From Cytophagales bacterium (GTDB lineage Bacteria > Bacteroidota > Bacteroidia > Cytophagales > Spirosomataceae): a DNA stretch of 60,563 nucleotides. Numbering within the stretch: position 1 is the first letter of the stretch; each line of letters starts with the position of its first letter. The stretch covers positions 1 to 60,563 of the forward strand of contig JAAFKE010000018.1 in NCBI GenBank assembly GCA_013298215.1. The letters are read 5' to 3'. Under the pieces are notes generated by a model. The model was not told where the DNA came from. It saw only the letters and a program-made list of their open reading frames with translations, and ran no database searches. The position numbers and the translations under genes were made by a program. This document shows, piece after piece, positions 11,647 through 60,200 of the stretch.

Positions 11647-13836
11647 ATGAAAAAGCTACTTTTTAGCGGCCTTTTATCCCTAATGTGCGTGTGCTTGCTC
11701 GCCCAACCACCCCAGGTGATTGTCCAAAACTTGCCCGCAGGTATTATAGACGGCGTAAACTATTTGAGCGATACCCGAGTGGTTGTGTCGCTGTTTGCGC
11801 CCCGAAAAGAAAACGTTTACCTACTCGGCGAGTTTAATAATTTTCAGCAAACGCCCCAAAGCCTCATGCGGCGCACGCCCGATGGCAGCCGCTTTTGGCT
11901 GGAAGTCAATGGTTTGGTGGCGGGCCAAGAATATGCCTACCAGTTTTTGGTCGATGGCACAATAACGGCCGCCGACCCGTATGCCGACAAAATTCTTGAT
12001 CCTGACAACGACAGAAACATACCAGCGGCGGTTTTTCCGAGTCTCAAAACCGTTCCTGCCGCCGCCCGTGGCATTGTGTCGGTGTTGCAAACTGGCCAGC
12101 GACCTTTTGTTTTTAGGTCTGCCAAGCCCGCCCAGTTGCCCGACGATCGCTTGATGATTTACCGCGTGCTGCTCCGCGATTTTATTGCCAGTCCCAGCTA
12201 TAAAGCACTTGCTGACTCGGTGGGGTACTTCAAAAAACTGGGTGTGAACGCCATTCAGCTCATGCCCATTTTAGAGTTTGGTGGCAACGGAGGCGAGGCG
12301 CTGAACTACTGGGGCAATAATCCTAATTTTTTCTTTGCCCCCGACAAGGTATATGGCCCCAAAGACGAGCTGAAAGCCTTCGTAGACAAGTGCCACGCCA
12401 ACGGTATTTTTGTGCTTTTAGAAATGCCCTTGGACCAAGTCGATAAAGATTTTCCTTATACCAAGTTGTACGCAAACGGGGCGAGGCCATCGGCCGATAA
12501 CCCGTTTTTGAATGCGCGCTCCGCCCAGGCGTTTAGCGAGCTAAACGACCTAAACCACGAAAGTGCCACTACCCGCGCTTTCATAGACCGGCTGCTCGAA
12601 TATTGGCTCAAAGAGTATAATATTGACGGTTTCAGGCTTTTCAACGCCGCCGGCTACACCCAAACATTTACGGCCAACGACCCGTCGCAGGTGGGCAATG
12701 TCGATGCCAGTCGGCAGGTAAATTTGTCGCGCATACTCAATAAAGTTAAGAGCATAGACCGCCGCGCCGTGGTGATCTCAGACCAGTTTTTCGATCCCCG
12801 CGAGACCATCCCGATTGCCCAAAATGGCATGATGCTGGTGCTGAATATGCACTCACAGTTCAATTTTTTGATGCGTGGCTTGGAAAGTGAGCTCGACTTT
12901 AACCAGATGTCCTTCAAGCGGTTCGGCCTGCAATCGGGGCAGTTTACGGCCTTTATGGAAGACATTGAGGAGCAGTCGCAGATGGGGTCGATGCTCCGCT
13001 TGGGCAACGGAAACGCCACCCACAACCCCCGAAACCTACCCGATGCCCTGGAACGCGCCAAGCTGGCCGCCGCTTTTTTTATTTTGTATCCTGGCTCAAA
13101 AACCTTCTGGCAGTTTCAAGAAATGGGCAACGAGTACTTTTTTGAAGACGAAAAAACGCTCAGAAATCCCCGCCAACCGCAGTGGGACAACTTAAAAAAC
13201 GCGGGCAAGGTCAAACTTCTGAAGGCTTACCAAGAATTGTTGAAACTAAAAAATGCCAACCGCATTTTTACGGACATAAACTATTCGGAGGCCAAAGGCG
13301 AAAAAATGAAGCGGATGACCTTCAACTCGCCCGAGGGGCAGGCGCATCTGATCGGTAATTTTGGCACCGAGCCAGCCTACATTCGCACGGCGTTTCCGCG
13401 CACGGGCAAGTGGTTCGATTTTTTCACGGGCGACGAAATTACCGTGACCGAAACCACGGCGGAGGTGCTTTTGCAGGCGGCTGAGTTTCACGTTTATTTG
13501 GACCAAAAACCTGCTTTTACGCCCGAAAAGGGCATTGTGCCGTGGCAAGGAAAACTCGGTTTGATAACCGCCAGCAGCCCAGAGTTTGAGCGCGGCATTA
13601 TTTTAGCCCCCAATCCATCGCGCGACTTTGTGACCCTAAAACTGCCCGAGGGAACAACTGGCGACGTGACTTTTCAGATTACGGATTTGAGCGGCAGGAG
13701 CGTTTTTGTCGAAAAAATAAGCAGTCTCGGTGCGGAGTCGCACAACATCGACGTTCGGGATTTGGCCAATGGTACCTACCTGTTGGGCATTCAGAGCGAC
13801 AAAAATAGCGCCGTTAAGAAAATTATAAAATACTAA
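11647..13836 (+). CDS. Secreted GH13-like protein with T9SS sorting domain, catalytic residues lost
   Basis: 729 aa: signal peptide (1-20), CBM48-like early-set domain (about 40-105, LGEFNNFQ), GH13-type barrel (about 168-560) and a C-terminal type IX sorting domain (about 650-729, starting near APNPSRDFVTLKLP, ending KKIIKY). Relatives in Bacteroidota are active alpha-amylases. Here the four conserved GH13 regions are recognisable but lack their key residues. Region I, usually DxxxNH, is E259-MPL-D263-Q264. The nucleophile Asp in GFRxD is Phe332 (GFRLF). The acid/base Glu is Asp379 (ISDQF). Region IV His-Asp is Ile440-Glu441. The frame is intact and the fold signature conserved, so this is probably a non-catalytic glycan-binding or structural surface protein. 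A T-rich terminator follows. Confidence 0.85.
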   Translation: MKKLLFSGLLSLMCVCLLAQPPQVIVQNLPAGIIDGVNYLSDTRVVVSLFAPRKENVYLLGEFNNFQQTPQSLMRRTPDGSRFWLEVNGLVAGQEYAYQFLVDGTITAADPYADKILDPDNDRNIPAAVFPSLKTVPAAARGIVSVLQTGQRPFVFRSAKPAQLPDDRLMIYRVLLRDFIASPSYKALADSVGYFKKLGVNAIQLMPILEFGGNGGEALNYWGNNPNFFFAPDKVYGPKDELKAFVDKCHANGIFVLLEMPLDQVDKDFPYTKLYANGARPSADNPFLNARSAQAFSELNDLNHESATTRAFIDRLLEYWLKEYNIDGFRLFNAAGYTQTFTANDPSQVGNVDASRQVNLSRILNKVKSIDRRAVVISDQFFDPRETIPIAQNGMMLVLNMHSQFNFLMRGLESELDFNQMSFKRFGLQSGQFTAFMEDIEEQSQMGSMLRLGNGNATHNPRNLPDALERAKLAAAFFILYPGSKTFWQFQEMGNEYFFEDEKTLRNPRQPQWDNLKNAGKVKLLKAYQELLKLKNANRIFTDINYSEAKGEKMKRMTFNSPEGQAHLIGNFGTEPAYIRTAFPRTGKWFDFFTGDEITVTETTAEVLLQAAEFHVYLDQKPAFTPEKGIVPWQGKLGLITASSPEFERGIILAPNPSRDFVTLKLPEGTTGDVTFQITDLSGRSVFVEKISSLGAESHNIDVRDLANGTYLLGIQSDKNSAVKKIIKY

Positions 13837-13932: not shown

Positions 13933-14082
13933 AAAGCCGGGTTGGTTCAGACCCACGCAGGACGGGGTCGGAACAACAACTTACAAGTAGAGTTGGTGAA
14001 AACAGCAGAAATAACCACGTAATTGGCGCGGGCAAAATACAATACCAAAAAGGATTAGACGCGGTAAGATTTAGCCAAAACG

Positions 14083-14712
14083 TTACCTTACAGGAAACTG
14101 AACTTTGCGGTAAATATCTGACATTGGCAGTGGAAACCCCTCAATTTGGAGGCTCTCATTCAGTCCCTTGAAATCTTGATTGAGCCACGTATTGGGCGAG
14201 TCGGTGCGGCTAAAACTCATTATTTTGGGGCGGTCTTGGAATATGTACACAATCTGCTTTACGCTTTCAAAGTCTTTGTATTCTTCCAATTTGTCGGACG
14301 TGTCGAACGAGGAAGTAGAAGGCGAAAGCACCTCGAAAATTAAATAAGGATTGGTAATGAGCGCATTAGAGTTTTCTTTGAACTGCGGGGTGTCTTTTAC
14401 TACCAGCACATCGGGCATATAAAACCCGCCCTCGAACTTGGGTGCGTAAACGCCCGAATTGCTGCCCATTACGAGGTAGTCGTTGTTGCTGATGAGCCTA
14501 TTTTGAAGAATCCAAATAAGGTTGGCAACAATCGTCTCGTGCCAAATAGAAGCAAGTCCCATAGTAATAATTTCGCTTTGGTGGTATTCAATTTTGAAGG
14601 GTAGCTCGGCAATAACGGCCATGTATTCGGCCTCCGAAGCGGGAATTTGTACCAGCGACTGGGTTTTCAATTGCTCCGAAATACTTTTGATGATACTTTC
14701 AGCGGCGACCAT
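14083..14712 (-). CDS. Uma2 family (DUF820) restriction-endonuclease-like protein
   Basis: 209-aa member of the Uma2/DUF820 family, which has a PD-(D/E)XK nuclease fold and no settled biological role. The core shows YMPDVLVV (metal-binding Asp) and LIFEVLSPSTSSFDTSDKLEEY (Glu plus the family signature), with Lys in the conserved DKLEEYK stretch. An upstream ELPFKIEYHQSEIITM matches the usual family opening. It stands alone on the minus strand, convergent with the amylase-like gene and divergent from the DUF4249 gene. Such genes are often multicopy and mobile-looking; nothing mobile flanks it here. Confidence 0.85.
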   Translation of the reverse strand: MVAAESIIKSISEQLKTQSLVQIPASEAEYMAVIAELPFKIEYHQSEIITMGLASIWHETIVANLIWILQNRLISNNDYLVMGSNSGVYAPKFEGGFYMPDVLVVKDTPQFKENSNALITNPYLIFEVLSPSTSSFDTSDKLEEYKDFESVKQIVYIFQDRPKIMSFSRTDSPNTWLNQDFKGLNESLQIEGFPLPMSDIYRKVQFPVR

Positions 14713-14890
14713 GGTTTAGCATTTTTTTATCAAATATACTATTTTTGGTAATAATGCAGCCACCACGAAATGAAATATTTTCTTCCTTTTGCGTTGCATA
14801 TTACGCGTTTTTAACCGTTTTTTAGACTCCCGACTCGCTCAAAACCAGCGGCTTAGGGTAGGTACTAACGCGGTGTTGAATACCTAACAA

Positions 14891-14925
14891 AATCAAGTAC
14901 CTCAGTGTCGCCGAGGTACTTGATT
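14891..14925. promoter_or_regulatory. Perfect 13-bp hairpin just before the DUF4249 gene
   Basis: AATCAAGTACCTC (14891-14903) pairs perfectly with GAGGTACTTGATT (14913-14925) around a 9-nt loop and is followed by seven A. It ends 13 nt before the ATG at 14,939. It could be a leader attenuator, or a terminator left from a lost neighbour. Otherwise the 14,713-14,938 gap shows nothing clear. Confidence 0.5.
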
Positions 14926-14938
14926 AAAAAAATAGAAG

Positions 14939-15793
14939 ATGAGAACATTACGCGCATCGGGAATTGTAGTCACGGCATTGCTTTGCGTTGGCTGCCTACG
15001 AGAAAACCTCATTGTAGACATTGAACTGCCCGACTCTCAGCCTGTGCCTGTGGTTTTTGGGTTGTTCACTCCTATATCCGATAGTTTGCAGATAAATGTA
15101 AGGTGGTCTTTTCCAATTGGTAGCCAAAATCTCCTCACAAAAGATGCGATTAATGACGCACAAATTTGGCTTGTCAATCTTGTCAAAAAAGACAGCGTTC
15201 AATTGCTCTACCGCCGTGGGGGCGTATATGGCCTCCCTCAACGCCAATATCCGCTTCAAGTCGGTGCTTTATACCGCGTTGCGGTAAAAGTGCCTCAACA
15301 AAAATTGCTTACGGCCTATTTTACCATACCTCACAAGAAAGTTCAGTACAGCAGAATTGATTACGGAAAAGCCAAAATACAACCCAGTGGTTCGTGGCGT
15401 AGAGATGTGACAAAATATTGGCAAGATGTTTCTACGCCTTCAAAAAAATATTTTTATTACACTGCCGAAATCGAAAAAGGGCAGTCCAAAGCCTTTCTTG
15501 CCTTCAATGAGTCTGAATTTGTTCAGAGGGCTGATAATATGTTGTACACTTTCAACGACATAAGTTCGAGTACTCAAAATGCGACTATGATTTTCTATCT
15601 TATCAGTTGTGAAAAAACGGTGTATGATTTTCTAAAGTCCTCTCTTTTAGTGAGTGATATTATAAAAGCTAAAAACGTAGATTTGCTCACCTCTTTTAAA
15701 GGAGTGCTACCCGAATATAGTAACGTTGAAAATGGGCTTGGTTTTGTGGGAGGATATACAATGTCAGATACTACCATCTATGTTCGTGATTAA
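14939..15793 (+). CDS. DUF4249 family outer-membrane lipoprotein
   Basis: 284-aa protein with a lipoprotein-type signal ending LLCVGC (Cys19 is the likely lipidated residue; Cys at -3 is atypical). It then reads ENLIVDIELPDSQPVPVVFG, with the ISDSLQINVRWSFPIG and 'DAQIWL' segments typical of DUF4249. Proteins of this family are partners of TonB-dependent receptors and may act as surface lids or ligand-binding lipoproteins; the ligand is unknown. The next gene, a TonB-dependent receptor, starts inside this one (14-bp overlap), so translation is probably coupled. The more common order is receptor first. The coding sequence looks more AT-rich than its neighbours. Confidence 0.78.
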   Translation: MRTLRASGIVVTALLCVGCLRENLIVDIELPDSQPVPVVFGLFTPISDSLQINVRWSFPIGSQNLLTKDAINDAQIWLVNLVKKDSVQLLYRRGGVYGLPQRQYPLQVGALYRVAVKVPQQKLLTAYFTIPHKKVQYSRIDYGKAKIQPSGSWRRDVTKYWQDVSTPSKKYFYYTAEIEKGQSKAFLAFNESEFVQRADNMLYTFNDISSSTQNATMIFYLISCEKTVYDFLKSSLLVSDIIKAKNVDLLTSFKGVLPEYSNVENGLGFVGGYTMSDTTIYVRD

Positions 15794-18110
15794 GCTACTG
15801 ATACCACTACTTCTCTTCTCACTTTTGGCAAAAACACAAGTGAATAGCATATTGGTCGTAGATGCGGAGACCTCTAAGCCTATTGAGCTTGCATCGGTAA
15901 GAGCAAACAACAAAGTCCAGCTTACAAAAGAAGACGGTAAGGTATTTTTTAAATATGACATAGCCAAGGGAACAGTTATCATTGTTAGGCACCTGGCCTA
16001 CAAAACGCTTAAACTTACAATAGAAGAGAAAAATGAGAAGATTTTAACTGTAAGACTTATTCCACAAAGCAATACCCTTTCAGAAGTAGTTATTCGTAAT
16101 GCCAATTTTCAGGGTCGTATTGAAGACACAGATGTGAGCCAACTGCAAATAACTTCCCAGAAACTCAGCGCAGTCCCATCTCTGGGTGGAGAAAAAGACT
16201 TAATAAAAGCCTTAATGCTCATGCCAGGCGTGAAGGCCGTTAGCGAAGGGAGCAATGCGATGTTTGTGAGAGGCGGCGGGGCAGATCAAAATCTGCTGTT
16301 GCTCAACAACGTTCCTATGTATGGCTCTACCCACTTATTTGGACTACTTTCTACCTTTAATAGTGATATTATCGACAAGGCCACACTCATCAAGGGTGGT
16401 TTCCCTGCTTCTTACGGTGGGCGGCTTTCGTCCATATTAGATGTCAGTACCAAAATAGGTAATCTGAACCACTGGCAAGTTCGAGGGGCAATAGGACTAC
16501 TTTCATCAAAACTCACCATTGAGGCACCAATAATCAAAGACCGCCTGTCGGCCGTAGTAGCCGCAAGGCGGAGTTATTGGGACGTATTTATTCAACAAAA
16601 TACCAATCCAGAACAGTCTAATAGTGTTCCTAAGTACTATTATTACGACTTGAATGGAAAACTTTATTTTAAAGCTAATTCCAACAATATATTTTCAGTT
16701 TTTGTGTACGGCGACCAAGACAAAGCGTATGCCAAACAAATAGAAGAAGACAAAATAATGGATAATCGACTTTATTGGCGCAATAGATTGAGTGGACTCA
16801 CGTGGGAAAAATACGTGAGTCCTCGGTTGAGTTTTTCTTCTACACTAAGTCGTTCTTATTATTCTACTAACATTAACACCCAAAAAACAGAAAAAAAGCA
16901 ATATTCGGAGCAAGATTTTACGACTTACATAGAAGACCTAACACTACAAAGTACTGCCACTTACCAGTACCGCTCTACAAAGCTAAAAACTGGACTTTGG
17001 CTAACCCACCGAACGTATCAGCCGGGAATCATCAACTACACCATAGATAGTACCAATTATTCTCTCACCAATTTTAAGAATACACCGCTTATCGATGCTT
17101 CTTTGTTTCAAGAAATGAATCAAAGTTGGTCAAAAAGATTTAAAACAAATGCGGGATTAAGAGTCAATTTTTATCAGACTGCCCCTAAAAATTATGTCTT
17201 TCTTGAACCCCGTCTTCAATTCAACTTCCTGATTGATAGTTCTTTATCAGTAAAAGGCTCTTACAGTCGCATGAACCAATCGGTGCATCTGCTTACCAAC
17301 CCAGGCTTGGGTATTCCGTTGGATTTGTGGGTGCCTTCAACCAATCGCATCAAGCCCCAAACTGCCGACCAACTTACGCTTGGGGTGTTTTATCATCCAA
17401 GTTTTGATAAGTCCTTATTTTTTAGCGTGGAGGCTTACTACAAACGCATGAATAATATTATCTCTTATCTTGACGGCAGAAGCTCATCGGATCTTATCAA
17501 CTATTCGCAAGACCGCAACAACCAGTGGGAAAACGTGGTTGCAAGTGGGCAGGGGCGAGCCTATGGAGTGGAATTTTTGGTAGAACAAAACAAAGGGCCT
17601 TTGACGGGCTGGATAGGCTATACGCTGTCGTGGGTAAGTCATCAGTTTGATGCACTCAACAAGGGGCAGTGGTTTTTTCCAAGGTTTGACCGCAGGCACG
17701 AGCTATCGGTGGTAGGCGCGTATGCCATTAATAAACGTTGGAGCATAAATGTAAGCTGGGTTTATGCAACAGGGCAGCCGATAACCATACCTGTGTTGGC
17801 TTATAATGTGCCTAGGTTTGACTTTGTCAATTTTTCGATTCCTAACAATACTTACCAAATTTATTCGCAAGGCGAGCGAAACGCTTTCAGAATGGTTTCT
17901 TTTCATCGTTTAGACCTTAATTTTCAACGCAAATCTTACCATCGTTGGGGTGAAGGCATTTTTGAATTTGGGTTTTACAATGCGTACAATCGTAAAAATC
18001 CTTACTACTATACATTGGGCGTTACCGCCAACCAGCCTGTCATCAAAAGTGTTTCATTGCTCCCTGTTATCCCCACAGTTTCCTACTCCTTTATTATCAA
18101 CACTAAATGA
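15780..18110 (+). CDS. TonB-dependent receptor with carboxypeptidase-like N-domain
   Basis: Outer-membrane TonB-dependent receptor, 776 aa from the ATG at 15,780. That start gives a clean signal peptide MFVIKLLIPLLLFSLLAKTQ; an upstream in-frame ATG at 15,726 would bury it. Order: CarboxypepD_reg-like beta-sandwich (about 22-105), plug domain (about 110-230, with KALMLMPGVKAV and FVRGGGADQNLLLLN), then a 22-strand-type barrel ending PVIPTVSYSFIINTK. It should import an unknown substrate using TonB energy together with the DUF4249 lipoprotein whose gene it overlaps. It does not look like SusC/RagA and has no SusD partner. The coding sequence is AT-rich relative to genes upstream. Confidence 0.88.
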   Translation: MFVIKLLIPLLLFSLLAKTQVNSILVVDAETSKPIELASVRANNKVQLTKEDGKVFFKYDIAKGTVIIVRHLAYKTLKLTIEEKNEKILTVRLIPQSNTLSEVVIRNANFQGRIEDTDVSQLQITSQKLSAVPSLGGEKDLIKALMLMPGVKAVSEGSNAMFVRGGGADQNLLLLNNVPMYGSTHLFGLLSTFNSDIIDKATLIKGGFPASYGGRLSSILDVSTKIGNLNHWQVRGAIGLLSSKLTIEAPIIKDRLSAVVAARRSYWDVFIQQNTNPEQSNSVPKYYYYDLNGKLYFKANSNNIFSVFVYGDQDKAYAKQIEEDKIMDNRLYWRNRLSGLTWEKYVSPRLSFSSTLSRSYYSTNINTQKTEKKQYSEQDFTTYIEDLTLQSTATYQYRSTKLKTGLWLTHRTYQPGIINYTIDSTNYSLTNFKNTPLIDASLFQEMNQSWSKRFKTNAGLRVNFYQTAPKNYVFLEPRLQFNFLIDSSLSVKGSYSRMNQSVHLLTNPGLGIPLDLWVPSTNRIKPQTADQLTLGVFYHPSFDKSLFFSVEAYYKRMNNIISYLDGRSSSDLINYSQDRNNQWENVVASGQGRAYGVEFLVEQNKGPLTGWIGYTLSWVSHQFDALNKGQWFFPRFDRRHELSVVGAYAINKRWSINVSWVYATGQPITIPVLAYNVPRFDFVNFSIPNNTYQIYSQGERNAFRMVSFHRLDLNFQRKSYHRWGEGIFEFGFYNAYNRKNPYYYTLGVTANQPVIKSVSLLPVIPTVSYSFIINTK

Positions 18111-18411
18111 CCGAATGATTTGTGGCCAGACTTTTAGAGGTTTCATTAAAAAAGCATTGCCTGTGGGTACAAAGGTAACGATATACGTAGGATTCTGCTT
18201 GTCAGTACGGACATTGACAATGATGCCAATCTAATTTAACTTTGTGTCCAAGTATTTATCTGGATATAAACCCTTAAATGATCTCGAAGCCATATTTTGC
18301 CCATAAAGTCTGAGCAACTTTACGAGCAAGATACCATGTACTTTTAAGCAGGATGGTTAAAGGGTTAGGACAACTCTTACTCTTTAACCACTCTAATAAC
18401 TATGGCCTTTT
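18111..18411. other. Intergenic region with an inverted repeat before the GLPGLI gene
   Basis: No gene is supported in these 301 bases. TGGTTAAAGGGT (18,354-18,365) and ACTCTTTAACCA (18,379-18,390) form a 12-bp stem with one G-T pair, ending 21 bp before the next ATG. It could be an operator or leader structure. It lacks a T-run. Confidence 0.4.
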
Positions 18412-19239
18412 ATGAAAACTATAATCACACTCCTTTTTTTAGTTTACACATCGCAGGTAATTTTGCCATCAACTTATCGGGTTAAGTACAGTCTTATTTA
18501 CCAGCCAGATTCGACCAATAGTAAGCGCGTGGCTTCGGAGAATTTTTTTCTTTATTTGCACACGGGCGAGTCGTCCATGTTTGGCCCAGAAGGCCGTTTC
18601 AAGAGCGACTCCGTTAGGGCTTTGATAAAGAAAGGTGTTTTGTCAGAATATGCCCAACTCGATGGCCAAAACAGGTTTAAAACCAATTTTAAATATTTTG
18701 TCTGTAAAGATTATGCAAAAGTAGAAACCATCGTGCACGAATCCATTAGTACCGACAGGTTCACCTACGCTGCGCCAAGTACCTTTAACTGGAAAATTAT
18801 GGCGGAACAAGACAGTGTGGCTGGGTATTTTTGTACAAAAGCAACGGCTAATCACGCTGGCCGAGATTACGAGGCTTGGTTCACAACCGACATTCCTATT
18901 TCAGATGGCCCGCACATATTTAGGGGCCTACCTGGGTTGATTGTAAAACTCTATGATAGCCGCAACCATTACGTTTTTATGTTGCAAAGTTTTCAAGAAT
19001 TTAAAGGAGAAAGAACCTTGAGCCCCACCTACATCAGTGCTACACCCATCCGAATAGACCAAGAAAAAATAATTTCTATCCGAAGTGAGTTTAGAAAAGA
19101 TAGATTAGAATATATGAGCCGCAGAACTGGCGTTGATTTCAAAGGTGGAACCTTCACTACACTAGATGGGGTAACCAAGCCCGCCATGGAGGCCAGGGTG
19201 GATCGTAGCTGGGATAATAACCCGCTGGAGTTGAAATAA
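18412..19239 (+). CDS. GLPGLI family secreted protein
   Basis: 275-aa member of the Bacteroidota GLPGLI family, named for a motif seen here as FRGLPGLIVKLYD (about residues 183-195). It has an N-terminal signal sequence (about 1-20), and the family-typical YRVKYSLIYQPDSTN and HEAWFTTDIPISDGP-like segment (here YEAWFTTDIPISDGP) just before the motif. The function of the family is unknown. These genes commonly sit beside a large outer-membrane receptor-like gene, and here one starts 10 bp downstream, so the two almost certainly form an operon and work together at the outer membrane. Confidence 0.9.
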   Translation: MKTIITLLFLVYTSQVILPSTYRVKYSLIYQPDSTNSKRVASENFFLYLHTGESSMFGPEGRFKSDSVRALIKKGVLSEYAQLDGQNRFKTNFKYFVCKDYAKVETIVHESISTDRFTYAAPSTFNWKIMAEQDSVAGYFCTKATANHAGRDYEAWFTTDIPISDGPHIFRGLPGLIVKLYDSRNHYVFMLQSFQEFKGERTLSPTYISATPIRIDQEKIISIRSEFRKDRLEYMSRRTGVDFKGGTFTTLDGVTKPAMEARVDRSWDNNPLELK

Positions 19240-19249
19240 AAACTACTTT

Positions 19250-21892
19250 ATGAGGTATTGGTCTGTTTTTTTCCTGCTCGCCTCCAACTATGTTTTTAGT
19301 CAATCGATTATAACGGGAAAAATCACAGACCGCCAGCGGGCGGCTGTTTCAAACATAAACGTTACACTGCACCTCCCCAACACTTCGGCTATTTTGGCCT
19401 TTGGTATTACCGACAAGCAAGGCAACTATGCAATTACTTACAAATCTGCTGCCGACTTGCTTGAGATTAGTGCCTTTGGGTTCGGCTATGCCAAGCAGCA
19501 AAAAAGCATTCAAAACAAAACGCAGGACGTTGGTTTTGTTTTGTCCGAACAAAACATAGCACTTAAAGAGGTAATTGTCAAAGAAAAACCCATCACCAGA
19601 AACGGCGATACGCTTTCTTACGCTGTTTCGGCTTTCAAAAATCAAAGCGACCGTTCCATCGGCGACCTAATTAAAAGGCTGCCAGGCTTGGAGGTAGATG
19701 CCAACGGGCGTATTTCTTACCAAGGCAAACCCATCAACAAATACTACATAGAGGGTCTGGACTTGCTCAGTGGCAGGTATAACCTCGCCAACGAAAACTT
19801 GCCCGTAGATGCCGTTACCCACGTTGAAGTACTCGAAAACCACCAGCCCATACGGGTGCTCGATAGTTTGGTGTTTTCTGAAAATGCGGCACTCAATATT
19901 CGTCTCAAAAACAAGGTAACTGCCACTGGTACGGCGCGGCTTGGCGCAGGTGTAGCACCTGCGCTGTGGGATGCCAATGTTACGCCCATGGTGTTTGGCA
20001 AAAGCCAACAGCTGATAGCGTCGTATCAGAGCAATAATTTGGGCAACAATGTGGCCAAGCAAATCAAAGTATTGACGATTGATGATGTCTTGAACCCGTT
20101 TGAGAACGATGATTCAAAAAAAAACTGGGTGAGAATTGTGCCGTTGGCCACACCGTCGTTTTCGGATACGCGCTGGCTCGACAATCAGATTCATTTAGGG
20201 TCGCTCAATTTCTTGCAAAAACTCCCCAAAGGATATGAGCTAAAAGCCAATCTGTCATATCTGCACGACAATCAACGTCAGATAGGAGGTACTCGAACCA
20301 TCAATTATACCCCACAAGACACCATTACTTTTGATGAAACTAAACGCAATAATTACCTTTTTGAAGCAATTGATGCCAGTTTAATTCTCGAAAAAAACGA
20401 CAAAGGCGGGTATCTTAAAAATCAACTTTCGTTCAAAGGCCAATGGGATAAAGAAACGGGGCTTTTGCAACTCAACAACAGCCCCATAAGCCAGCAGGCG
20501 ACAAGCCCGTATTTTTCGCTTACCAATAGTTTGAAGGATATTTTCAAGTTCAAAAATCGAGCCATTACTTTTCAATCATTCATAAACTTCCAGCACAGTC
20601 CGCAATCTCTCAGGGTAGTACCTGGCCCTTTTGCAGGTTTGCTCAACAACAAAATGGCTTTCGATTTGTTGCGCCAAACGACCACTACCCGTAGTTTTTT
20701 TACGCACAATAAAGTGAGTTTTAACCAAAATATCGGGAAGTTTTCGTTGGCTCCCCAAATAGGCTTTCAAGTCGAGAAACAAAGCCTTGGCAGTCAGATG
20801 CAACGTTTTAGCGCGAATGAACTCCCAACTACAATCGGGAACGATTACGCAAACCAGCTGGAGTGGCTCAAAGTGAACGCCTACCTAAAACTACAGACAC
20901 AATACCAAAAAGATAAGTGGCGGCTCACGCTCAATACGCCCGTTAATCATTATTTTTTTAGGGTAGGAGACGAGCCGCTCAAACAACAGCAAAACTTAAA
21001 CAGGCTCACTTTTGAGCCTAAATTCAACGTTAGGTACGACTTAAATCCGTTTTGGGCGTTATCGAGTTCGATCGACAAAAAAAATACTTTTGGCGAGATT
21101 GAGAATCTATTTTATGGTTATCTACTCAAAAATTATCGCACCCTCGAGCGGCGCAATGCCCCACTTCTCGACAATGTTTCGTGGGGAACCAGCTTCAATA
21201 TTCGTTACCGCAATCCGCTAACATCAGTATTTGGGTATGCCATTTATACAACCCGAACCACCAACAATAACCTCATTTATGGCACTCGGATCGCGGCGCA
21301 GGGTGCATCGGAGGGTTTTGCGTTGCCAACGTTCAACAAGTCGTATACCCAATCGGTAATCTTGCAAGTTGGTAAGTTTTTTAGCGCATTGAAAACGCAG
21401 GTGAGTTTAGACTATCAATCAACGTTTTCTGAACAGCAACAGATTATAAATGGGACAACAGTGCCCGTAAAAAACCAGAATAATTCGTTTGGGGTAAAGG
21501 TAAACGGGAAAATAGCCAAATGGGCCGATTTTGATTATAAGTTCAAACGATTTGGGTTTGAGAACCAGGTAAATAACCGCGAAAGTCGGCCTGCGTCACA
21601 ACAAATACATGAGCTAAATTTGAGTTTTTACCCAAGTAAAAGTACATTTGTTGGCCTTAAAAATGAGTACTATACCAATAACTTCACTTCCAGCAGGAGC
21701 CAAAATATTTTTAGTGATTTTATGATTCGCTATACTTTCCGCAAACATAAAATAGACATCGAAACCAACTGGAACAACATTTGGAATACTTCCCAGCTCT
21801 CGTTTATTTCGGCAAATGCCTTTTCGGTCATCGAGTCCAACTATCAGCTTCGGCCCGTGCAGGTGGTTCAAAAAATCAGGTTTTCATTCTAA
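19250..21892 (+). CDS. TonB receptor-like outer-membrane protein paired with GLPGLI
   Basis: 880-aa outer-membrane protein: signal peptide (1-18, ending VFSQ), CarboxypepD_reg-like domain (about 19-105, SIITGKITDRQRAAVSNINV), plug-like region (about 110-220, with GDLIKRLPGLEVDANGRISY and KYYIEGLDLL), then a long beta-barrel ending VQVVQKIRFSF, with the aromatic C-terminus typical of outer-membrane barrels. No clear TonB box is seen, so energy coupling is uncertain. It follows the GLPGLI gene by 10 bp. The substrate is unknown; the partner family is secreted, so import or export of a peptide or of GLPGLI itself are possible readings. Confidence 0.82.
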   Translation: MRYWSVFFLLASNYVFSQSIITGKITDRQRAAVSNINVTLHLPNTSAILAFGITDKQGNYAITYKSAADLLEISAFGFGYAKQQKSIQNKTQDVGFVLSEQNIALKEVIVKEKPITRNGDTLSYAVSAFKNQSDRSIGDLIKRLPGLEVDANGRISYQGKPINKYYIEGLDLLSGRYNLANENLPVDAVTHVEVLENHQPIRVLDSLVFSENAALNIRLKNKVTATGTARLGAGVAPALWDANVTPMVFGKSQQLIASYQSNNLGNNVAKQIKVLTIDDVLNPFENDDSKKNWVRIVPLATPSFSDTRWLDNQIHLGSLNFLQKLPKGYELKANLSYLHDNQRQIGGTRTINYTPQDTITFDETKRNNYLFEAIDASLILEKNDKGGYLKNQLSFKGQWDKETGLLQLNNSPISQQATSPYFSLTNSLKDIFKFKNRAITFQSFINFQHSPQSLRVVPGPFAGLLNNKMAFDLLRQTTTTRSFFTHNKVSFNQNIGKFSLAPQIGFQVEKQSLGSQMQRFSANELPTTIGNDYANQLEWLKVNAYLKLQTQYQKDKWRLTLNTPVNHYFFRVGDEPLKQQQNLNRLTFEPKFNVRYDLNPFWALSSSIDKKNTFGEIENLFYGYLLKNYRTLERRNAPLLDNVSWGTSFNIRYRNPLTSVFGYAIYTTRTTNNNLIYGTRIAAQGASEGFALPTFNKSYTQSVILQVGKFFSALKTQVSLDYQSTFSEQQQIINGTTVPVKNQNNSFGVKVNGKIAKWADFDYKFKRFGFENQVNNRESRPASQQIHELNLSFYPSKSTFVGLKNEYYTNNFTSSRSQNIFSDFMIRYTFRKHKIDIETNWNNIWNTSQLSFISANAFSVIESNYQLRPVQVVQKIRFSF

Positions 21893-21952
21893 TAAAACAC
21901 CAAATTAGGTTCCGTCACAACATTCCTTGCACCAAATTTCCCATCAAACCAA

Positions 21953-22852
21953 ATGACATACAAGCACTTAAGCCTTTTCATTATCATTGCTTCGCTTCGG
22001 GTTTCTGCCCAAACGCCAGATTCGTTTAGGCGACAAATACAAGAGATCATTTCGGCCAAGAACGTCGTTGTGGGCGTTGCCATTGTTGGAAATAACGGCC
22101 AAGACACCCTTTCGATAAACGGCGAAAGGCGTTTTCCGATGCAAAGTGTGTTCAAATTTCATATTGCGTTGGCGGTGTTGTCTCAGATCGACAAGGGCAA
22201 ACTGTCGCTCGATCAAAAAATTAGAATCGATAAAAGAGACCTTTTGCCCTTTCTCTACAGCCCAATGAGGGACGAATACCCCAACGGTGCTACCCTCACC
22301 ATTTCAAGGATATTGCAATACACGGTTTCTGAGAGCGACAACGTTGGTTGCGAAATTTTGCTGGGGCTCATTGGTGGCGCAAAGGTGGTGGAGGATTATT
22401 TTGTCGAGAACGGTTTCAAGGACGTATCAGTCAAACACAACGAACAACAACAGCAGGCCAATTGGGCGTTGCAATTTGACAACTGGACAACCCCCAAATC
22501 GGCGAACGAAATCTTGGCCGCGTTTTTTTACAACAAGAAAAAACTACTCTCGAAGAAAGCGCACGCTTTTATCTGGAAAACAATGAAAGAAACCACAACG
22601 GGGCAAAACAGATTAAAAGGCCGCCTGCCCCAAAATACGGTTGTTGCCCACAAAACGGGTTCTTCGGGCGCAAACAAGGAGGGCATAACGGCGGCGGTAA
22701 ACGACATTGGAATCGTTTTTTTGCCCAACGGACAGCATTATTTTATCAGCGTTTTTGTGGCAAATTCGACCGAAAATGCAGACACCAACGAGCGGGTAAT
22801 TGCAGATATTTCGAGAGCCGCGTGGGATTATTTTATGACCAAACCGAAATAA
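21953..22852 (+). CDS. Class A beta-lactamase, subclass A2 (PER/CfxA-like)
   Basis: 299-aa periplasmic serine beta-lactamase with signal peptide (1-20, ending VSAQ). All catalytic elements are present: S65-V-F-K68, S128-D-N130, the omega-loop Glu164 in NEQQQQAN, and K234-T-G236 preceded by VVAH. The long linker with LPFLYSPMRDEYPNGATLTI and the QFDNWTTPKSA segment match the A2 branch with PER and CfxA enzymes of Bacteroidota. It should hydrolyse penicillins and cephalosporins; the spectrum cannot be read from sequence. It follows the receptor gene by 60 bp on the same strand. No mobile element flanks it, so it looks like an intrinsic chromosomal gene. Confidence 0.92.
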   Translation: MTYKHLSLFIIIASLRVSAQTPDSFRRQIQEIISAKNVVVGVAIVGNNGQDTLSINGERRFPMQSVFKFHIALAVLSQIDKGKLSLDQKIRIDKRDLLPFLYSPMRDEYPNGATLTISRILQYTVSESDNVGCEILLGLIGGAKVVEDYFVENGFKDVSVKHNEQQQQANWALQFDNWTTPKSANEILAAFFYNKKKLLSKKAHAFIWKTMKETTTGQNRLKGRLPQNTVVAHKTGSSGANKEGITAAVNDIGIVFLPNGQHYFISVFVANSTENADTNERVIADISRAAWDYFMTKPK

Positions 22853-45349: not shown

Positions 45350-45650
45350 TTTTAGTATTGCATTATTTTGCTATTTTGTACAACGATTAAAATTTTACTA
45401 TTCCCATTTTTGTTGTATTATTTAAAGAATATTCACTTTTTTTGAAAAATAAAATGGGATTATGCGCCTATGAACTGTTACTATTAAAGCCAAAAACTGT
45501 ATTTTTTGTATTATTTCAATAAGTTCTTAAATTGTAGTATATAAACATTCGTAGAGGTGTTTTTTGACCCTTTTTTTTCTCGATTCGACCCGCAACCTTT
45601 GCATCGTCAAAGCAAGACTGTTGCGGATGTACATTAAATCTGAACAAAAA
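45350..45650. other. AT-rich intergenic region
   Basis: No gene is supported. The stretch is very AT-rich, with many T-runs. A 9-bp inverted repeat (45,402-45,410 with 45,451-45,459) is too widely spaced to call a terminator. AACCTTTG at 45,594-45,601 loosely resembles a -7 box 50 bp before the next ATG. Confidence 0.4.
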
Positions 45651-46250
45651 ATGAAAAAAAACACAATGATCTCAGCGGCCTTAGTAGCCGTCATGTTGGC
45701 CAGTACGGTAGGTACTTTCGCCAACGTCCACCGCGTAAAATCAACAATAAGTGCAGCCACCGTTGAAGGAAAAAAACTCAATGTGGTAGCAAACCGTCCC
45801 GAGGCTTCGGCCGTTCGGGTCGAGATTAGGGATGCCGACGGCATTGCCCAGTACGACGGCACAGAAAACTCTGGCCAATTCAAGAAGCAATACAACCTGG
45901 CTGCGTTGGCCGAGGGCAATTATACCCTCACGTTATCGACCGACCAGTGGGTGAGCGTTCAGCCGTTTAGCATAGCGGGTGCCAACGTGCTGCTCAGTAC
46001 TGCCAACTACCAAGAGGTGGTTAAAGTAGCGGTTGCTCAATTGGCAAACAACAATTTTGTGGTGCAAGCCAACACCAAAAACGTGCCACTTTTGGGCGTG
46101 AGTTTGGTCAATAGCTACGGCGAGGTTGTGCATACCGACACCGTTACGGAGGCCAAACAGTTCAACTTGAACAAGTTGCCAAAGGGAAAATATACCTTTG
46201 TGGTGAGCCTGGGAAACAAGGAGATCACTCAAAACGTGGTTGTAAAATAA
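45651..46250 (+). CDS. Secreted Ig-like protein of unknown function
   Basis: 199-aa protein with signal peptide (1-25, ending GTFAN) and a mature part of two similar beta-sandwich modules. KKLNVVANRPEASAVRVEIR with AEGNYTLTLS in the first mirrors NNNFVVQANTKNVPLLGVSL with PKGKYTFVVSL in the second. These resemble Ig-like or DUF3244-type domains of secreted Bacteroidota proteins. The ATG at 45,651 is preferred over upstream in-frame starts because it begins MKKNTMISAALVAVM, a clean signal peptide. It is a single gene with a strong terminator, which fits a well-expressed small secreted protein. Confidence 0.8.
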   Translation: MKKNTMISAALVAVMLASTVGTFANVHRVKSTISAATVEGKKLNVVANRPEASAVRVEIRDADGIAQYDGTENSGQFKKQYNLAALAEGNYTLTLSTDQWVSVQPFSIAGANVLLSTANYQEVVKVAVAQLANNNFVVQANTKNVPLLGVSLVNSYGEVVHTDTVTEAKQFNLNKLPKGKYTFVVSLGNKEITQNVVVK

Positions 46251-55439: not shown

Positions 55440-56300
55440 CTAATGCACCATTTTTTCGATTGGTATTATCAAAATTCCTTGCGCACCAGCCGCTCTGATG
55501 GCCTCGATGTTGTTCCAGAAGTCGTTTTCTTCGATCACCGAGTGCACCGAACTCCACCCGCCCGCCGCCAGTGGCAACACCGTGGGGCTTTTCATGCCTG
55601 GTATCAGTCCGATAATCTCGTTGAGTTTGTCGTTTGGGGCATTCAGCAGAATATATTTGTAGTTTTGGGCAGTTTGAACGGCGTTGATTCTGAACAATAA
55701 TTTGGCGAGAATCGCCCGTTTTTCGTCGCTCAATGTGGGGTTGCCCACCAACACTGCCTCCGAACGAAAAATCACCTCTACTTCTTTGAGGCCGTTGCTC
55801 AGTAGGGTGCTTCCCGAACTCACAATGTCGCAAACGGCATCGGCCAACCCGATGCTGGGGGCAATCTCGACCGATCCTGATATAACGTGTATGTTTGCCT
55901 GTATGTCTTTGGCCGCCAGGTATTTACCCAATAAGTTTGGGTACGAAGTGGCAATGCTTTTGCCCTCAAAATTGTTGATATTACCGTAGGTTTCGCCGCG
56001 CGGAATGGCAATTGACAGGCGACACTTAGAAAACCCGAGTCGGTGAACCACGTCTAACTGATGGTTGCTTTCGACGTACACGTTTTCGCCCACTATGCCC
56101 AGGTCGGCTACCCCGTCGGCCACGTACCCCGAAATATCATCGTCCCTCAGAAACAAAAACTCGGCAGCAAAATTGCTCGAAACCGACCGAAGTTTACCCG
56201 ACGAACCCGCCTCGAACTTGATTCCACATTCTTTAAAAAGTTGGATCGAATCCTCACTCAACCGCCCCGATTTCTGAAGCGCAATACGAATACTGGTCAT
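55440..56300 (-). CDS. hisG: ATP phosphoribosyltransferase, long form
   Basis: First enzyme of histidine synthesis, joining ATP and PRPP. 286 aa from ATG 56,300 (MTSIRIALQKSGRLSEDSI); an upstream start would add 14 residues. The catalytic domain has DLGIVGENVYVE and the PRPP loop DAVCDIVSSGSTLLSNGL. The C-terminal part, with LPLAAGGWSSVHSVIEENDF, is the ACT-like regulatory domain of the long form, which allows histidine feedback inhibition. It is a single minus-strand gene, not next to hisD or other his genes. Confidence 0.95.
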   Translation of the reverse strand: MTSIRIALQKSGRLSEDSIQLFKECGIKFEAGSSGKLRSVSSNFAAEFLFLRDDDISGYVADGVADLGIVGENVYVESNHQLDVVHRLGFSKCRLSIAIPRGETYGNINNFEGKSIATSYPNLLGKYLAAKDIQANIHVISGSVEIAPSIGLADAVCDIVSSGSTLLSNGLKEVEVIFRSEAVLVGNPTLSDEKRAILAKLLFRINAVQTAQNYKYILLNAPNDKLNEIIGLIPGMKSPTVLPLAAGGWSSVHSVIEENDFWNNIEAIRAAGAQGILIIPIEKMVH

Positions 56301-57221
56301 GTGTATTTTTTTATGATAAAGCGGGCCAAGATGGCCTGCCACTGGATAACTAAGTGTAAAAATAGTTAGAAAACTTCAGGTTCTTCTCCTCTTTTAGTGG
56401 GGATCAGTATATTCAGTTTAGCATTGGGACTTCAATCACCATTAATGATTAGTTCCGTTGATTTTAAATAGGTTTCAGACAAGCAAGAGTTGCACATAGA
56501 AGTTGGCCATAAGAAGGAGGTAAGTTTTTAGTACGACGGTCGAAGATATAGTCTGTATGGCGGGGAAGAGAAATTAAGGAGACAGCAGATATATTAATTT
56601 GTTTGATAATTTAAGGGAAGCAAAGCAGTTTGGTACGATGTTTGTAACAAATGAAATTGCAGATGTACGTACTACGACAAGTTACGTTTGCTACCCCATG
56701 AGTTTTTTTTATTTGCCTATATGTCTAAATTGAGCCAATAGCGGCTCCTTTTTTGATCTTAGCAAGATATTTGCTGCACTTTACTTGATAGAAGCCCAAT
56801 GTCTTAATTGAACACATTGGTTTCACTATCCAATTACTTTTCATCTTTTTAGTAATTATATCACTACAATGGAGTATTGTTTTACCTCGTTGGTTATCTG
56901 GTCCTACCGGTCTCACAGGCTGCTTTGCGTTATGTTGATGGTAGTTTTGCTGACTTCTCCAACTACCAATGCCCACATGAACAAAACGATTTTTCGCAAC
57001 CCCACGAAGATCGACTTATTCAGGGTTCCGGTTCAATCTTTTTACAGCTCGATCCCGCCAATTGGATATCCCAAAATGGCCAATGCTGCGGGAGCTTGTG
57101 CATCTGTTATATAGGAGGCATTTCAACTATTACTCCTGTCTACTTAAAATACGTTACTCTACATCTCACAAGAAAATTAAATTCAGGCATTAACAACCAA
57201 ACCATTTAATACCCCGCAATC
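56301..57221. other. 921-bp AT-rich region without a supported gene
   Basis: Open frames of 80-110 codons exist on both strands (for example 56,869-57,114 plus and 56,725-56,976 minus), but none shows a recognisable domain or signal peptide. TACGTTTG at 56,683-56,690 fits a -7 box, with TTG at 56,657 somewhat too far upstream. It may hold the promoter and long leader of the giant gene, or a decayed gene. Confidence 0.45.
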
Positions 57222-60200
57222 ATGAAAAATTATACCACGCTCAGACACGTCGGCCTATTTCGCTTCGCGTTTTTCGCTCTGTTGTGTCTTTTTAGTCTAA
57301 CGGTATCGCATGCCCAAACCCTTTCTGGTACAGTATACCGCGATTACAATGCCAATGGTGTGCTAAACGCCAACGAAGAAGGAGCTGCGGGGGTGTCGGT
57401 ACGGGCATTTGACGCTTCAGGTTCCCAAATAGGGCCAACTGCTATTTCGGGTACCAATGGAACTTGGTCTATCTTTACGGGTACTTCGGCTCGACTTAGG
57501 ATCCAGTTTTCGCTCCCTAACACAAATATAAATCCTGCTGGCGCGCGGGCAGGGATTGACTTTGAAGCGGCAGTTTCCTCAACGGGTACTAACGTTCAGT
57601 TTTTTACGGGCGGCTCTTCGGGGGTTAATTTCGGCATCAACCTCCCCAGTGATTATTGCCAGCCTAATCCCAACTTGGTTATTCCGTGTTATGAAAATGG
57701 AAATGCAGCCCCCAATACCAACAAGGGGATTGTGTCGACTCCTTATAATAATTCGGGCAGTAGTTTAACGGGTATCAGTGGCGTAGCCAATATAAATCAA
57801 GTCGGTTCAGTTTGGGGCATGGGCTGGTCGGCGCAATCAAAAAGGATGTTTGCTTCAGCCGTGCTGAAACGGCACGTTGGTTTGGGACCCCAGGGAATGG
57901 GCGGTGTTTATGTCATGGATATGTTCAGCTCACCTGGCAACGTAGCCACCAGTTTTACTTTGCAGGGCATTAGTCCCGTAAATGGTGGACCATCCATTGA
58001 TTTGGGCTCGGTAAACCGCAGTGGCTCTTCGGATTTTATCCTTCCCAACAGTACGACAGCCGATAGCCGCGACATTGATGCATTACTTAAAGTAGGAACC
58101 GTTGGTTACGGCGACGCCGAGGTGACGGAAGATGGTAAATCACTCTGGTTGGTGAACCTCAACCAGCGGGCGCTGATTAAAGTAGACATCAGTGCGCCGT
58201 CCACCTATCCGCCCTCATCAAGTGCGCCAGTTAGCCAATATTCTATTTTAGGAATGGCGGGGGCACCTTCTTGCCCAAATGGCAGCTTTAGACCTTGGGC
58301 ATTAAAGTTTCACCGAGGAGTGGGCTACTTGGGAGTTGTCTGCAACGCCTCGCTTGGTACTGTCTCAGACTTATTGGTTACTATTTATTCGTTTGATCCA
58401 AATAATCCTGTTGCATTAACTCAACTAAAACAATTTTCGATGGCTTATCCCCGCGAGAAAGCACGTGATTTCGGGCCGTTCGGTAACACTGAGAATGGTG
58501 GTTGGAAGCCTTGGATAACAGCTTGGCCTCTTGGTCCCTTTGAAGGAACAAGCAATGCTGGCGTTCCTTATGAGAGAGCGTGGCCGCAGCCCATGTTGAC
58601 CGATATTGAATTTACGCAACAGGGAAAAATGGTCCTCGGCATAGCTGACCGTTGGGGATTTCAAACGGGCTTTCAGAACAGACTGGCAATTTCGGGTTCA
58701 AATTTACTCATTTCAGGAGTTAATGCGGGCGACATTCTCCAGCTTTGCAATGTCAACGGCACTTGGTTGTGGGAAGGTCAGACGGGTGGTTGCCCCGTAA
58801 ACGACAACAGCGCTGGCGTTACGAGTACTTCTATCACCGATAGTCCAAACGGATCAGGGGAGTTTTTCTACCAAGATTCGTTCAACGATACTGATTATGC
58901 GCCCACGTGGAATCACGACGAAACTGCTTTGGGTGGATTAGCCGTTTTAAAGGGGTCCAATGAAGTAGTAGCAGGACACTACAATCCCATTAATGGCAAA
59001 GGACTCAATAACTCGGGCCTTAGCACTGCTTTTACTTCTGGGCTTTTGTTTCACAATACTGCAACAGGGGCTCGTTCTGATGAACTGCTGATTATTCCAA
59101 GTTCATACACTACAACCGCTGGGCTTGCTTCTCAAGGAAAAGCGACCAGTCTGGGAGATATGGAGCTGACGTGTAATCCGCCTCCAATCATGATCGGTAA
59201 CCGCGTATGGGAAGATATTGATAATGATGGTATCCAAGATGCCGACGAACTTGGTATTCCTGGCGTCCAAGTAGTTTTGAGAGGCCCTGGTCTTCCGAGT
59301 TCTGGGGTGTCGGTAACTACCAATAGCAATGGTGAATACTATTTTACCGATGCACCAGGGTCAAATACGACGGGCTTTGTTTACAACTTGGCTTTGGCAA
59401 ACCTCAACAACTACACGCTCACCTTCCCAACGGTGGTCAGTACCCTGTCAATTAGTACTCTACCAAACGCTGGTTCTGACAATACTATAAATTCGAAGCC
59501 AGCAGCTAATACGGGTGTTGTGTCCTTCACACTGGGTGACAAAGGTCAAAATAATTATATTTTCGATGCAGGTTATTACGGTTGTCCCTTGGTAACTCCA
59601 CCCGTGGGCACTGACCGCGCGATTTGTCAAGGCGCGGCGATCCCAGCCTTGACGGCAACAGTAGGCACAGGCGAGACCGTTGATTGGTACAGTGCAGCCA
59701 GTGGCGGCACGGCCATTGCGACGGGCAGTTTGAGCTACACGCCATCGGGTGCTGGCACGTTCTACGCCGAAACGCGGAACATCGCCACCAACTGTAAATC
59801 ATCAACTCGGACGGCCGTAACCTTGACGATCAACCCACTGCCAACGCTAACGTTGGTAGGCAGCGCAGTATGTTCGGTTGATTTATTGACCTATTCAGCT
59901 ACATTTACTTCTAACGGCACCGTAACGGCGAGTGCAGGTACGATCAGCGGCAACACCGTAACGGGCGTACCGATCGGCAGCAGCCTAACGCTGACCGCCA
60001 CCAGCACGCCAGGTTGCGTAACCACCTTAGTCGTGACACCTCCCGTGTGTACTTGTCCAGCGGTGACGCCACCCGTGGGAACGAACCGCGTGATTTGCCA
60101 AGGTGCGGCGATCCCCGCCTTGACGGCAACAGTAGGCACAGGCGAGACCGTTGATTGGTACAGTGCAGCCACTGGCGGCACGGCCATTGCGACGGGCAGT

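What the first reader, a model, noticed from the sequence alone, without database searches (positions are those of the whole stretch)
11647..13836. Secreted amylase homologue in which all four GH13 catalytic regions are degenerate
The sequence shows an intact 729-aa frame with signal peptide, CBM48-like domain, GH13 barrel and T9SS sorting domain. Every catalytic position I can align is changed: nucleophile Asp to Phe332, acid/base Glu to Asp379, region I Asp/Asn-His to Glu259/Asp263-Gln264, region IV His-Asp to Ile440-Glu441. Established GH13 knowledge says the nucleophile loss alone should abolish hydrolysis. Because the frame and fold motifs are kept, selection may have turned it into a glycan-binding or structural surface protein.
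Basis: partly seen in the sequence, partly recalled or inferred. Interest (0 to 1): 0.7.

Follow-up and report, generated by a model that had tools for sequence, protein, structure and literature searches.

The report
Secreted amylase relative without catalytic residues
A bacterium keeps an intact gene for a secreted starch-enzyme relative whose cutting residues have all changed, while a normal copy sits elsewhere in its genome; the changed protein most likely holds sugar chains on the cell surface instead of cutting them.

Summary
Window 11647-13836 is an intact 729-aa frame: signal peptide (by eye), CBM48, GH13_47-type barrel, T9SS sorting domain. The nucleophile (F332), acid/base (D379), region-IV His-Asp (I440-E441) and region-I Asp/Asn (E259/D263) positions are all changed. 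In 119 of 119 other homologues examined, the 259, 332, 379, 440 and 441 positions hold Asp, Asp, Glu, His, Asp. Gln264 is not a loss: 78 of 119 have Gln there.
The gene starts 67 bases behind maf, where 36 of 72 judged same-family genomes carry their GH13_47 gene (27 of 63 counting only long flanks). The same genome holds an intact copy elsewhere.
Divergence is concentrated in the barrel, most in its catalytic part; CBM48 and the sorting domain diverge ordinarily. Simulated neutral drift of this size never left the frame open. So it is very probably a selected non-catalytic protein made from the resident maf-linked gene. Surface alpha-glucan binding is the likeliest job and is untested. No second genome with the same losses was found; it stands as a single case.

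The parts
11647..13836 (+). 729-aa non-catalytic GH13_47-type protein
   Evidence: frame; domains; best solved relatives 8xx9/8xxa, E about 1e-116
11647..11706 (+). probable signal peptide, about aa 1-20
   Evidence: By eye; no predictor was run
11752..11985 (+). CBM48 module, aa 36-113
   Evidence: Pfam PF02922, 28.0 bits, cut-off 22.4; segment 30-113 has mean identity 0.536 to 77 relatives against 0.585 among them, 8 of 77 lower
12142..13251 (+). GH13 (beta/alpha)8-barrel region, about aa 166-535, strongly diverged
   Evidence: segment divergence
12289..12303 (+). insertion of about 5 residues (about aa 215-219) before the WGY motif, not seen in relatives
   Evidence: Gap of 5 columns in 4 of 4 relatives; column 216 is a gap in 119 of 119 homologues
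12316..12318 (+). N224, Tyr of the WGY motif in relatives
   Evidence: 118 of 118 references have Tyr
12421..12435 (+). region I: E259 (Asp in 119 of 119) and D263 (Asn in 118 of 119)
12640..12642 (+). F332 at the nucleophile position (end of model strand 328-332), codon TTC
   Evidence: (Asp in 119 of 119)
12781..12783 (+). D379 at the acid/base position (end of model strand 375-379)
   Evidence: (Glu in 119 of 119)
12838..12840 (+). V398, Trp in relatives
   Evidence: 118 of 118 references have Trp
12964..12969 (+). I440-E441 at the His-Asp of region IV
   Evidence: His and Asp in 119 of 119
13609..13827 (+). T9SS type A C-terminal sorting domain, aa 655-727
   Evidence: Pfam PF18962, 49.3 bits; NCBIfam TIGR04183, 41.8 bits
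10950..11579 (+). maf (Maf-like nucleotide pyrophosphatase), upstream neighbour of GH13_47 genes in many relatives
   Evidence: synteny

Best explanation
It is a secreted pseudoenzyme derived from a GH13_47 alpha-amylase. The resident maf-linked gene lost the roughly 200-280 N-terminal residues that relatives carry and its catalytic centre, while an intact copy elsewhere in the genome keeps the amylase job (the order of these events is inferred). The product is probably exported by the type IX system and held at the surface (shown: sorting domain and SprA translocon gene; inferred: export). It most likely binds alpha-glucan with its CBM48 and the altered barrel groove without cutting (inferred).
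For: Catalytic residues changed in the window and in 0 of 119 homologues. The 24 lost near-invariant columns are enriched in catalytic regions I-IV (9 of 24 lost against 5 of 58 kept, Fisher p 0.003; 12 against 6, p 0.0002, with wider borders plus W398; borders set by me after seeing the losses). Segment 328-445 has half the identity expected, while CBM48 and the sorting domain look ordinary. Neutral simulation to 42% identity gave 18 to 20 stops on average and at least 10 in each of 90 runs; simulating only the estimated excess barrel changes gave 0 of 400 runs without a stop. Intact copy L002 at C2:58673-60784. maf linkage in 36 of 72 judged same-family genomes, 27 of 63 if only upstream flanks over 1500 bases count. 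33 sorting-domain matches (31 over the cut-off) and one SprA in the genome. G+C and third-position G+C are close to those of maf and of the active copy.
Against: No orthologue with the same losses was found, so selection on the dead form cannot be measured directly. Binding is not shown, and W66 of CBM48 is Phe here (Trp in 113 of 116 references). Besides the barrel, the linker 114-165 is also more diverged than in any of 77 relatives. Three of the changed acids are still acidic (E259, D379, E441). The tree cannot place the long window branch, and a window plus L002 pair is not rejected (p-AU 0.374), so the duplication history is unsure. The structure model is only moderate (mean pLDDT 67.3, pTM 0.60, several active-site loops under 50).
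Confidence: 0.55

Rival explanations
1. A non-catalytic partner subunit of the active copy L002 (or of another surface amylase), working like plant ISA2 with ISA1: its value lies in complex assembly or substrate placing, not in independent glucan binding.
For: An intact paralogue with a sorting domain lies in the same genome. ISA2 is a GH13 paralogue that lost the nucleophile and acts in a complex (PMC12510319, passages).
Against: The two genes lie on different contigs and none of their compared neighbours is shared (neighbours of L002); no evidence of contact exists.
Confidence: 0.2
2. A decaying pseudogene that still happens to be open.
For: Single case; end branch 1.07 against a median of 0.12, 1.6 against 0.2 under the mixture model; the barrel and the linker are relaxed.
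Against: Simulated neutral drift of this size left no run without stops (substitutions only, starting from the own active copy); CBM48 and the sorting domain diverge ordinarily.
Confidence: 0.17
3. An enzyme with rebuilt catalysis (for example an inverting hydrolase using D379 and E441) or another substrate.
For: Three acids remain acidic with swapped identity; a new insertion and other changes lie near the catalytic motifs.
Against: No carboxylate at the nucleophile; the Tyr, Lys, Trp and Arg that are invariant in 118 references are also gone; Asp/Glu swaps are one-base changes expected under relaxation.
Confidence: 0.07

Closest known systems
RmGH13_47A, Rhodothermus marinus alpha-amylase (8xx9, 8xxa), GH13_47
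   Same: CBM48-A-B-C layout (entry title), 36% identity, VIA Z 29.8 over 525 residues at rmsd 9.1
   Different: 8xx9 keeps the catalytic Asp, Glu and His-Asp; the window keeps none of them
BoGH13ASus, Bacteroides ovatus, GH13_47 (8dge, 8dl1, 8dl2)
   Same: Related by sequence (E 2e-64) and fold (Z 29.8 over 502 residues at rmsd 9.6)
   Different: Active extracellular alpha-amylase (PMC11633381, passages); 27% identity in the structural alignment
Own-genome active copy L002 (G000:C2:58673-60784)
   Same: 42% identity, barrel and T9SS sorting domain
   Different: 965-aa open frame with an extra N-terminal region, catalytic residues intact, other neighbours, no Pfam CBM48 match listed
Plant isoamylase 2 (ISA2)
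   Same: GH13 paralogue with nucleophile and other catalytic residues changed, beside an active paralogue (PMC12510319, passages)
   Different: Plant isoamylase (relatives in GH13_11 in that paper), losses conserved across a whole lineage
rBAT and 4F2hc
   Same: Non-enzymatic GH13 relatives (PMC11239784 passages; PMC8537225 abstract)
   Different: Membrane heavy subunits of vertebrate amino-acid transporters
BmaN1 (GH13_45) and GH13_48 proteins lacking catalytic residues
   Same: Bacterial GH13 proteins with changed catalytic residues (PMC5347038 abstract; PMC11239784 passage)
   Different: BmaN1 changes only the transition-state Asp (to His) and is active; the window also lacks the nucleophile

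Membership tests
GH13 (alpha-amylase family, catalytic) | (beta/alpha)8-barrel | tested here: met
   Model strands and PDB matches, Z up to 29.8; model of moderate confidence
GH13 (alpha-amylase family, catalytic) | Triad Asp, Glu, Asp at strands beta-4, beta-5, beta-7 (criteria in PMC11239784) | tested here: not met
   Phe, Asp, Glu
GH13 (alpha-amylase family, catalytic) | Retaining cleavage of alpha-glucosidic bonds | not testable with these tools
   Needs an assay; not expected without a nucleophile
GH13_47 subfamily (descent) | Closest sequence and structure relatives are GH13_47 enzymes with CBM48-A-B-C layout | tested here: met
   subfamily of the two enzymes from PMC11239784 (passage) and the entry titles. 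No CAZy subfamily profile was at hand
CBM48 | Profile match over the curated cut-off | tested here: met
   28.0 bits against 22.4
CBM48 | Binding of alpha-glucan | not testable with these tools
   W66 is Phe
T9SS type A cargo | C-terminal sorting domain | tested here: met
   49.3 bits PF18962, 41.8 bits TIGR04183
T9SS type A cargo | T9SS translocon gene in the genome | tested here: met
   SprA 2281 bits
T9SS type A cargo | Signal peptide | not tested
   Typical by eye only
Established GH13 pseudoenzyme lineage (as ISA2) | Loss shared by a clade of homologues | tested here: inconclusive
   None found in the 222 family, 390 order, 395 phylum and 395 class genomes searched, which overlap (reporting limits E 1e-20, 1e-50, 1e-130, 1e-165). 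No other genome of genus code g1 is among the 95 matching rows

The most novel reading that the evidence does not exclude
The catalytic pocket was not simply lost but rebuilt: nucleophile to Phe, WGY to WGN, a new insertion, and three acids kept as acids with Asp/Glu swapped, giving a surface glycan receptor with a new ligand or a non-classical hydrolase made from a retaining amylase.
Probability: 0.08. Interest if true: 0.7.

Novelty: new variant of a known kind. Interest (0 to 1): 0.42.

Why it matters
The amylase-family pseudoenzymes with a described role that I met in the papers are eukaryotic (ISA2, rBAT, 4F2hc); for bacteria I met only GH13_48 sequences said to lack catalytic residues. 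This is a clean bacterial, secreted case. An intact sister copy in the same genome, a recognisable place behind maf, and a sharp contrast between a changed catalytic half and ordinarily diverging binding and export modules make it a usable natural experiment on how an enzyme becomes a binding protein. It also warns that a domain match alone would label it an alpha-amylase.

Tried and rejected
Misalignment or local frameshift as a cause of the odd residues was rejected: the flanking motifs align in frame on both sides. Foreign origin of the gene is not supported, as G+C and third-position G+C are close to maf and the active copy.

Looking for orthologues with the same losses in family, order, phylum and class gave none. 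The draws overlap; mostly five candidates per genome were scored in the family search and two in the wider ones, and the wider searches listed only strong matches. The genome-contig scan used exact 8-residue patterns and gave 5 relatives: four were read and keep their catalytic residues, the fifth (L041) is a partial match and was not examined.

The placing of the window branch on the tree failed; a sister relation to L002 is neither shown nor rejected. Split genes in G127 and G201 were looked at as possible parallel decay and set aside: the motifs next to the break are intact; one break holds N letters and the other is a frame change. Literature searches, judged by their listings, gave no report of a dead GH13_47 or of a T9SS GH13 pseudoenzyme; the library is open-access only, the BoGH13ASus paper was not held and no held paper contains the name RmGH13_47A.

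The first motif table mistranslated minus-strand loci and was redone. Rows dropped before the count: of 149 matching frames, 4 partial ones, 24 duplicates and 1 substring were set aside, leaving the window and 119 other homologues; many places listed were not fetched. L148, a distant row, was left out of the 118-row column count. The maf count takes genomes with short flanks as judged only when maf was seen, which favours the link; the 27 of 63 figure, counted by me from the rows, avoids this. The 36 genomes without maf include more distant paralogues.

Full report
WHAT IS THERE. The frame at 11647-13836 (+) is 729 aa. Pfam finds CBM_48 at aa 36-113 (28.0 bits), Alpha-amylase (50 bits, best stretch 295-499) and Por_Secre_tail at 655-727 (49.3 bits), all above cut-off. 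Of the 25 NCBIfam models shown, none of the amylase type reaches its cut-off; the sorting domain TIGR04183 does. The nearest solved proteins are the alpha-amylase 8xx9/8xxa (E about 1e-116) and 8dge/8dl1 (about 2e-64). The entry titles name these RmGH13_47A of Rhodothermus marinus and BoGH13ASus of Bacteroides ovatus, and PMC11239784 puts the B. ovatus and R. marinus alpha-amylases in subfamily GH13_47 (passage). I take the protein as a GH13_47 descendant.

CATALYTIC POSITIONS. In the alignment with 8xx9/8xxa, F332 stands on the nucleophile (Asp in 8xx9, Ala in 8xxa), D379 on the Glu acid/base, I440-E441 on His-Asp, E259 on the region-I Asp and D263 on Asn. I collected homologous frames from loci of the family, order and phylum searches and from genome contigs. 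Among 119 distinct homologues covering the region, the Asp259, Asp332, Glu379, His440 and Asp441 equivalents are present in 119 of 119; Asn263 in 118 of 119 (one Ala). Position 264 is Gln in 78 and His in 41. Over 82 columns that are at least 97% conserved in 118 references, the window keeps 58 and loses 24; the references lose a median of 0 and at most 4. Lost columns include Y224, D259, V261, N263, D332, K335, E379, W398, H440, D441 and R444. F332 (TTC) and I440 (ATT) need two base changes each from Asp or His codons (codons).

STRUCTURE. An AlphaFold2 model from the window protein and four relatives is of moderate confidence (mean pLDDT 67.3, pTM 0.60; segments under 50 include 209-223, 264-304, 334-352 and 490-517). 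It has strands 328-332 and 375-379, ending at F332 and D379, and a strand 433-437 just before 440-441, where GH13 carries its triad. VIA-align, a second look at Foldseek's own matches, gives Z 29.8 to 8xxa (525 residues, rmsd 9.1, so the domains are not placed alike over the whole length) and Z 26.7 to TVAII 1g1y (363 residues, rmsd 3.0). No other carboxylate lies within two residues of F332 in the sequence. I had no coordinates, so a side-chain overlay was not made.

SURROUNDINGS AND HISTORY. The window is the whole of contig C10 of its genome. The gene begins 67 bases behind maf. Among same-family genomes, 36 of 72 judged carry their GH13_47 gene within 2 kb behind maf on the same strand, 36 do not, and 12 had too short a flank; counting only flanks over 1500 bases it is 27 of 63. 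The link occurs in several genus codes (g3, g5, g9, g11, g33 among them), so I take it as old in this family. The window gene sits at that place. The own genome holds an intact copy, L002, on contig C2 (42% identity, GYRFD/ILEHF/ESHDE intact), beside a rhamnosidase-like gene and efflux-type genes; in the short flanks compared, none of these neighbours matched beside other genomes' GH13_47 genes except an ABC-transporter-like match in one locus (L132). A third, 35% relative (L003) keeps its catalytic residues. Most fetched relatives have stop-to-stop frames of roughly 920-1000 aa in which the match to window residue 22 starts at about 230-300, so they carry some 200-280 more N-terminal residues. 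Of four scanned, DUF4961 is over cut-off in one and below it in two, and CBM48 is over cut-off in one (L037, 23.3 bits), below it in L003 and not listed for L002 and L008; the window's CBM48 match is the strongest of these. In the tree the window falls inside the Gln264-bearing clade of same-family and same-order rows, on an end branch of 1.07 against a median of 0.12 or 1.6 against 0.2 with a mixture model; its exact place is open, and a pair with L002 is not rejected (p-AU 0.374). The order, Cytophagales, is inferred: named Pontibacter and Hymenobacter relatives match or group with same-order genomes; the order's name is recalled.

IS IT KEPT? Mean identity to the Gln264 relatives by segment, window against relatives: CBM48 0.536 against 0.585 (8 of 77 relatives lower); linker 114-165 0.447 against 0.586 (0 of 77); 166-327 0.512 against 0.718 (0 of 78); 328-445 0.297 against 0.618 (0 of 78); 446-535 0.375 against 0.595 (0 of 78); domain C 0.308 against 0.402 (1 of 78); sorting domain 0.281 against 0.307 (20 of 75). 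So divergence is concentrated in the barrel, most of all in its catalytic part. Drifting the active copy without selection to 42% identity gives 18 to 20 stops on average and at least 10 in each of 90 runs. Drifting it only until the barrel has 60 or 91 changes (91 is my hand estimate of the excess from the means) gives 5 to 8 stops on average, no run of 400 without a stop, and 13 to 20 changes in CBM48 on average, where the excess seen is about 4. The simulations have substitutions only and start from the own active copy. The frame and the end modules were thus kept by selection while catalysis was released. This argument is indirect; without an orthologue dN/dS cannot be measured.

EXPORT. 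The genome has 33 matches to the T9SS sorting domain (31 over cut-off) and one SprA. Export of the window protein is inferred.

FUNCTION. Shown: changed catalytic residues, kept frame, kept CBM48 and sorting domain, intact copy elsewhere. Inferred: no hydrolysis, surface location, alpha-glucan binding. Precedents: ISA2, a GH13 paralogue with at least 4 of 5 conserved catalytic residues changed in every protein examined there, binds ISA1 (PMC12510319, passages); rBAT and 4F2hc are non-enzymatic GH13 members (PMC11239784 passages; PMC8537225 abstract); some GH13_48 proteins lack catalytic residues. A caution is BmaN1, active despite Asp to His at the stabiliser, but it keeps the other two catalytic residues (PMC5347038 abstract). 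I found no report of a non-catalytic GH13_47 protein (listings).

VERDICT. It is a variant of a known kind, GH13 pseudoenzymes, and so far a single case.

Noticed in passing
window 14000-22000: G+C falls from about 0.50-0.52 to about 0.40-0.46 just downstream of the gene, over Uma2, DUF4249, TonB-receptor and GLPGLI genes; possibly an acquired segment.
   Followed up: no
window 57222-60563: An open frame of at least 1114 aa runs off the contig end; repeat-rich surface-protein character by eye, with a 471-base tandem repeat (59591-60563, 2.1 copies, 88% matches). No Rfam match in 56000-60563.
   Followed up: partly
L143 (G201) and L138 (G127): GH13_47 genes split into two frames near the same point (query 345-364); the catalytic motifs next to the break are intact, and L138 holds N letters at the break.
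   Followed up: partly
L134, L140, L141, L142 (G103, G099, G106, G105): A sub-clade of shortened, maf-linked GH13_47 frames (579-592 aa) that keep their catalytic residues; the match in G099 runs on through one TAA.
   Followed up: no
window 45564-46250: A short frame with a weak T9SS sorting domain (27 bits).
   Followed up: no
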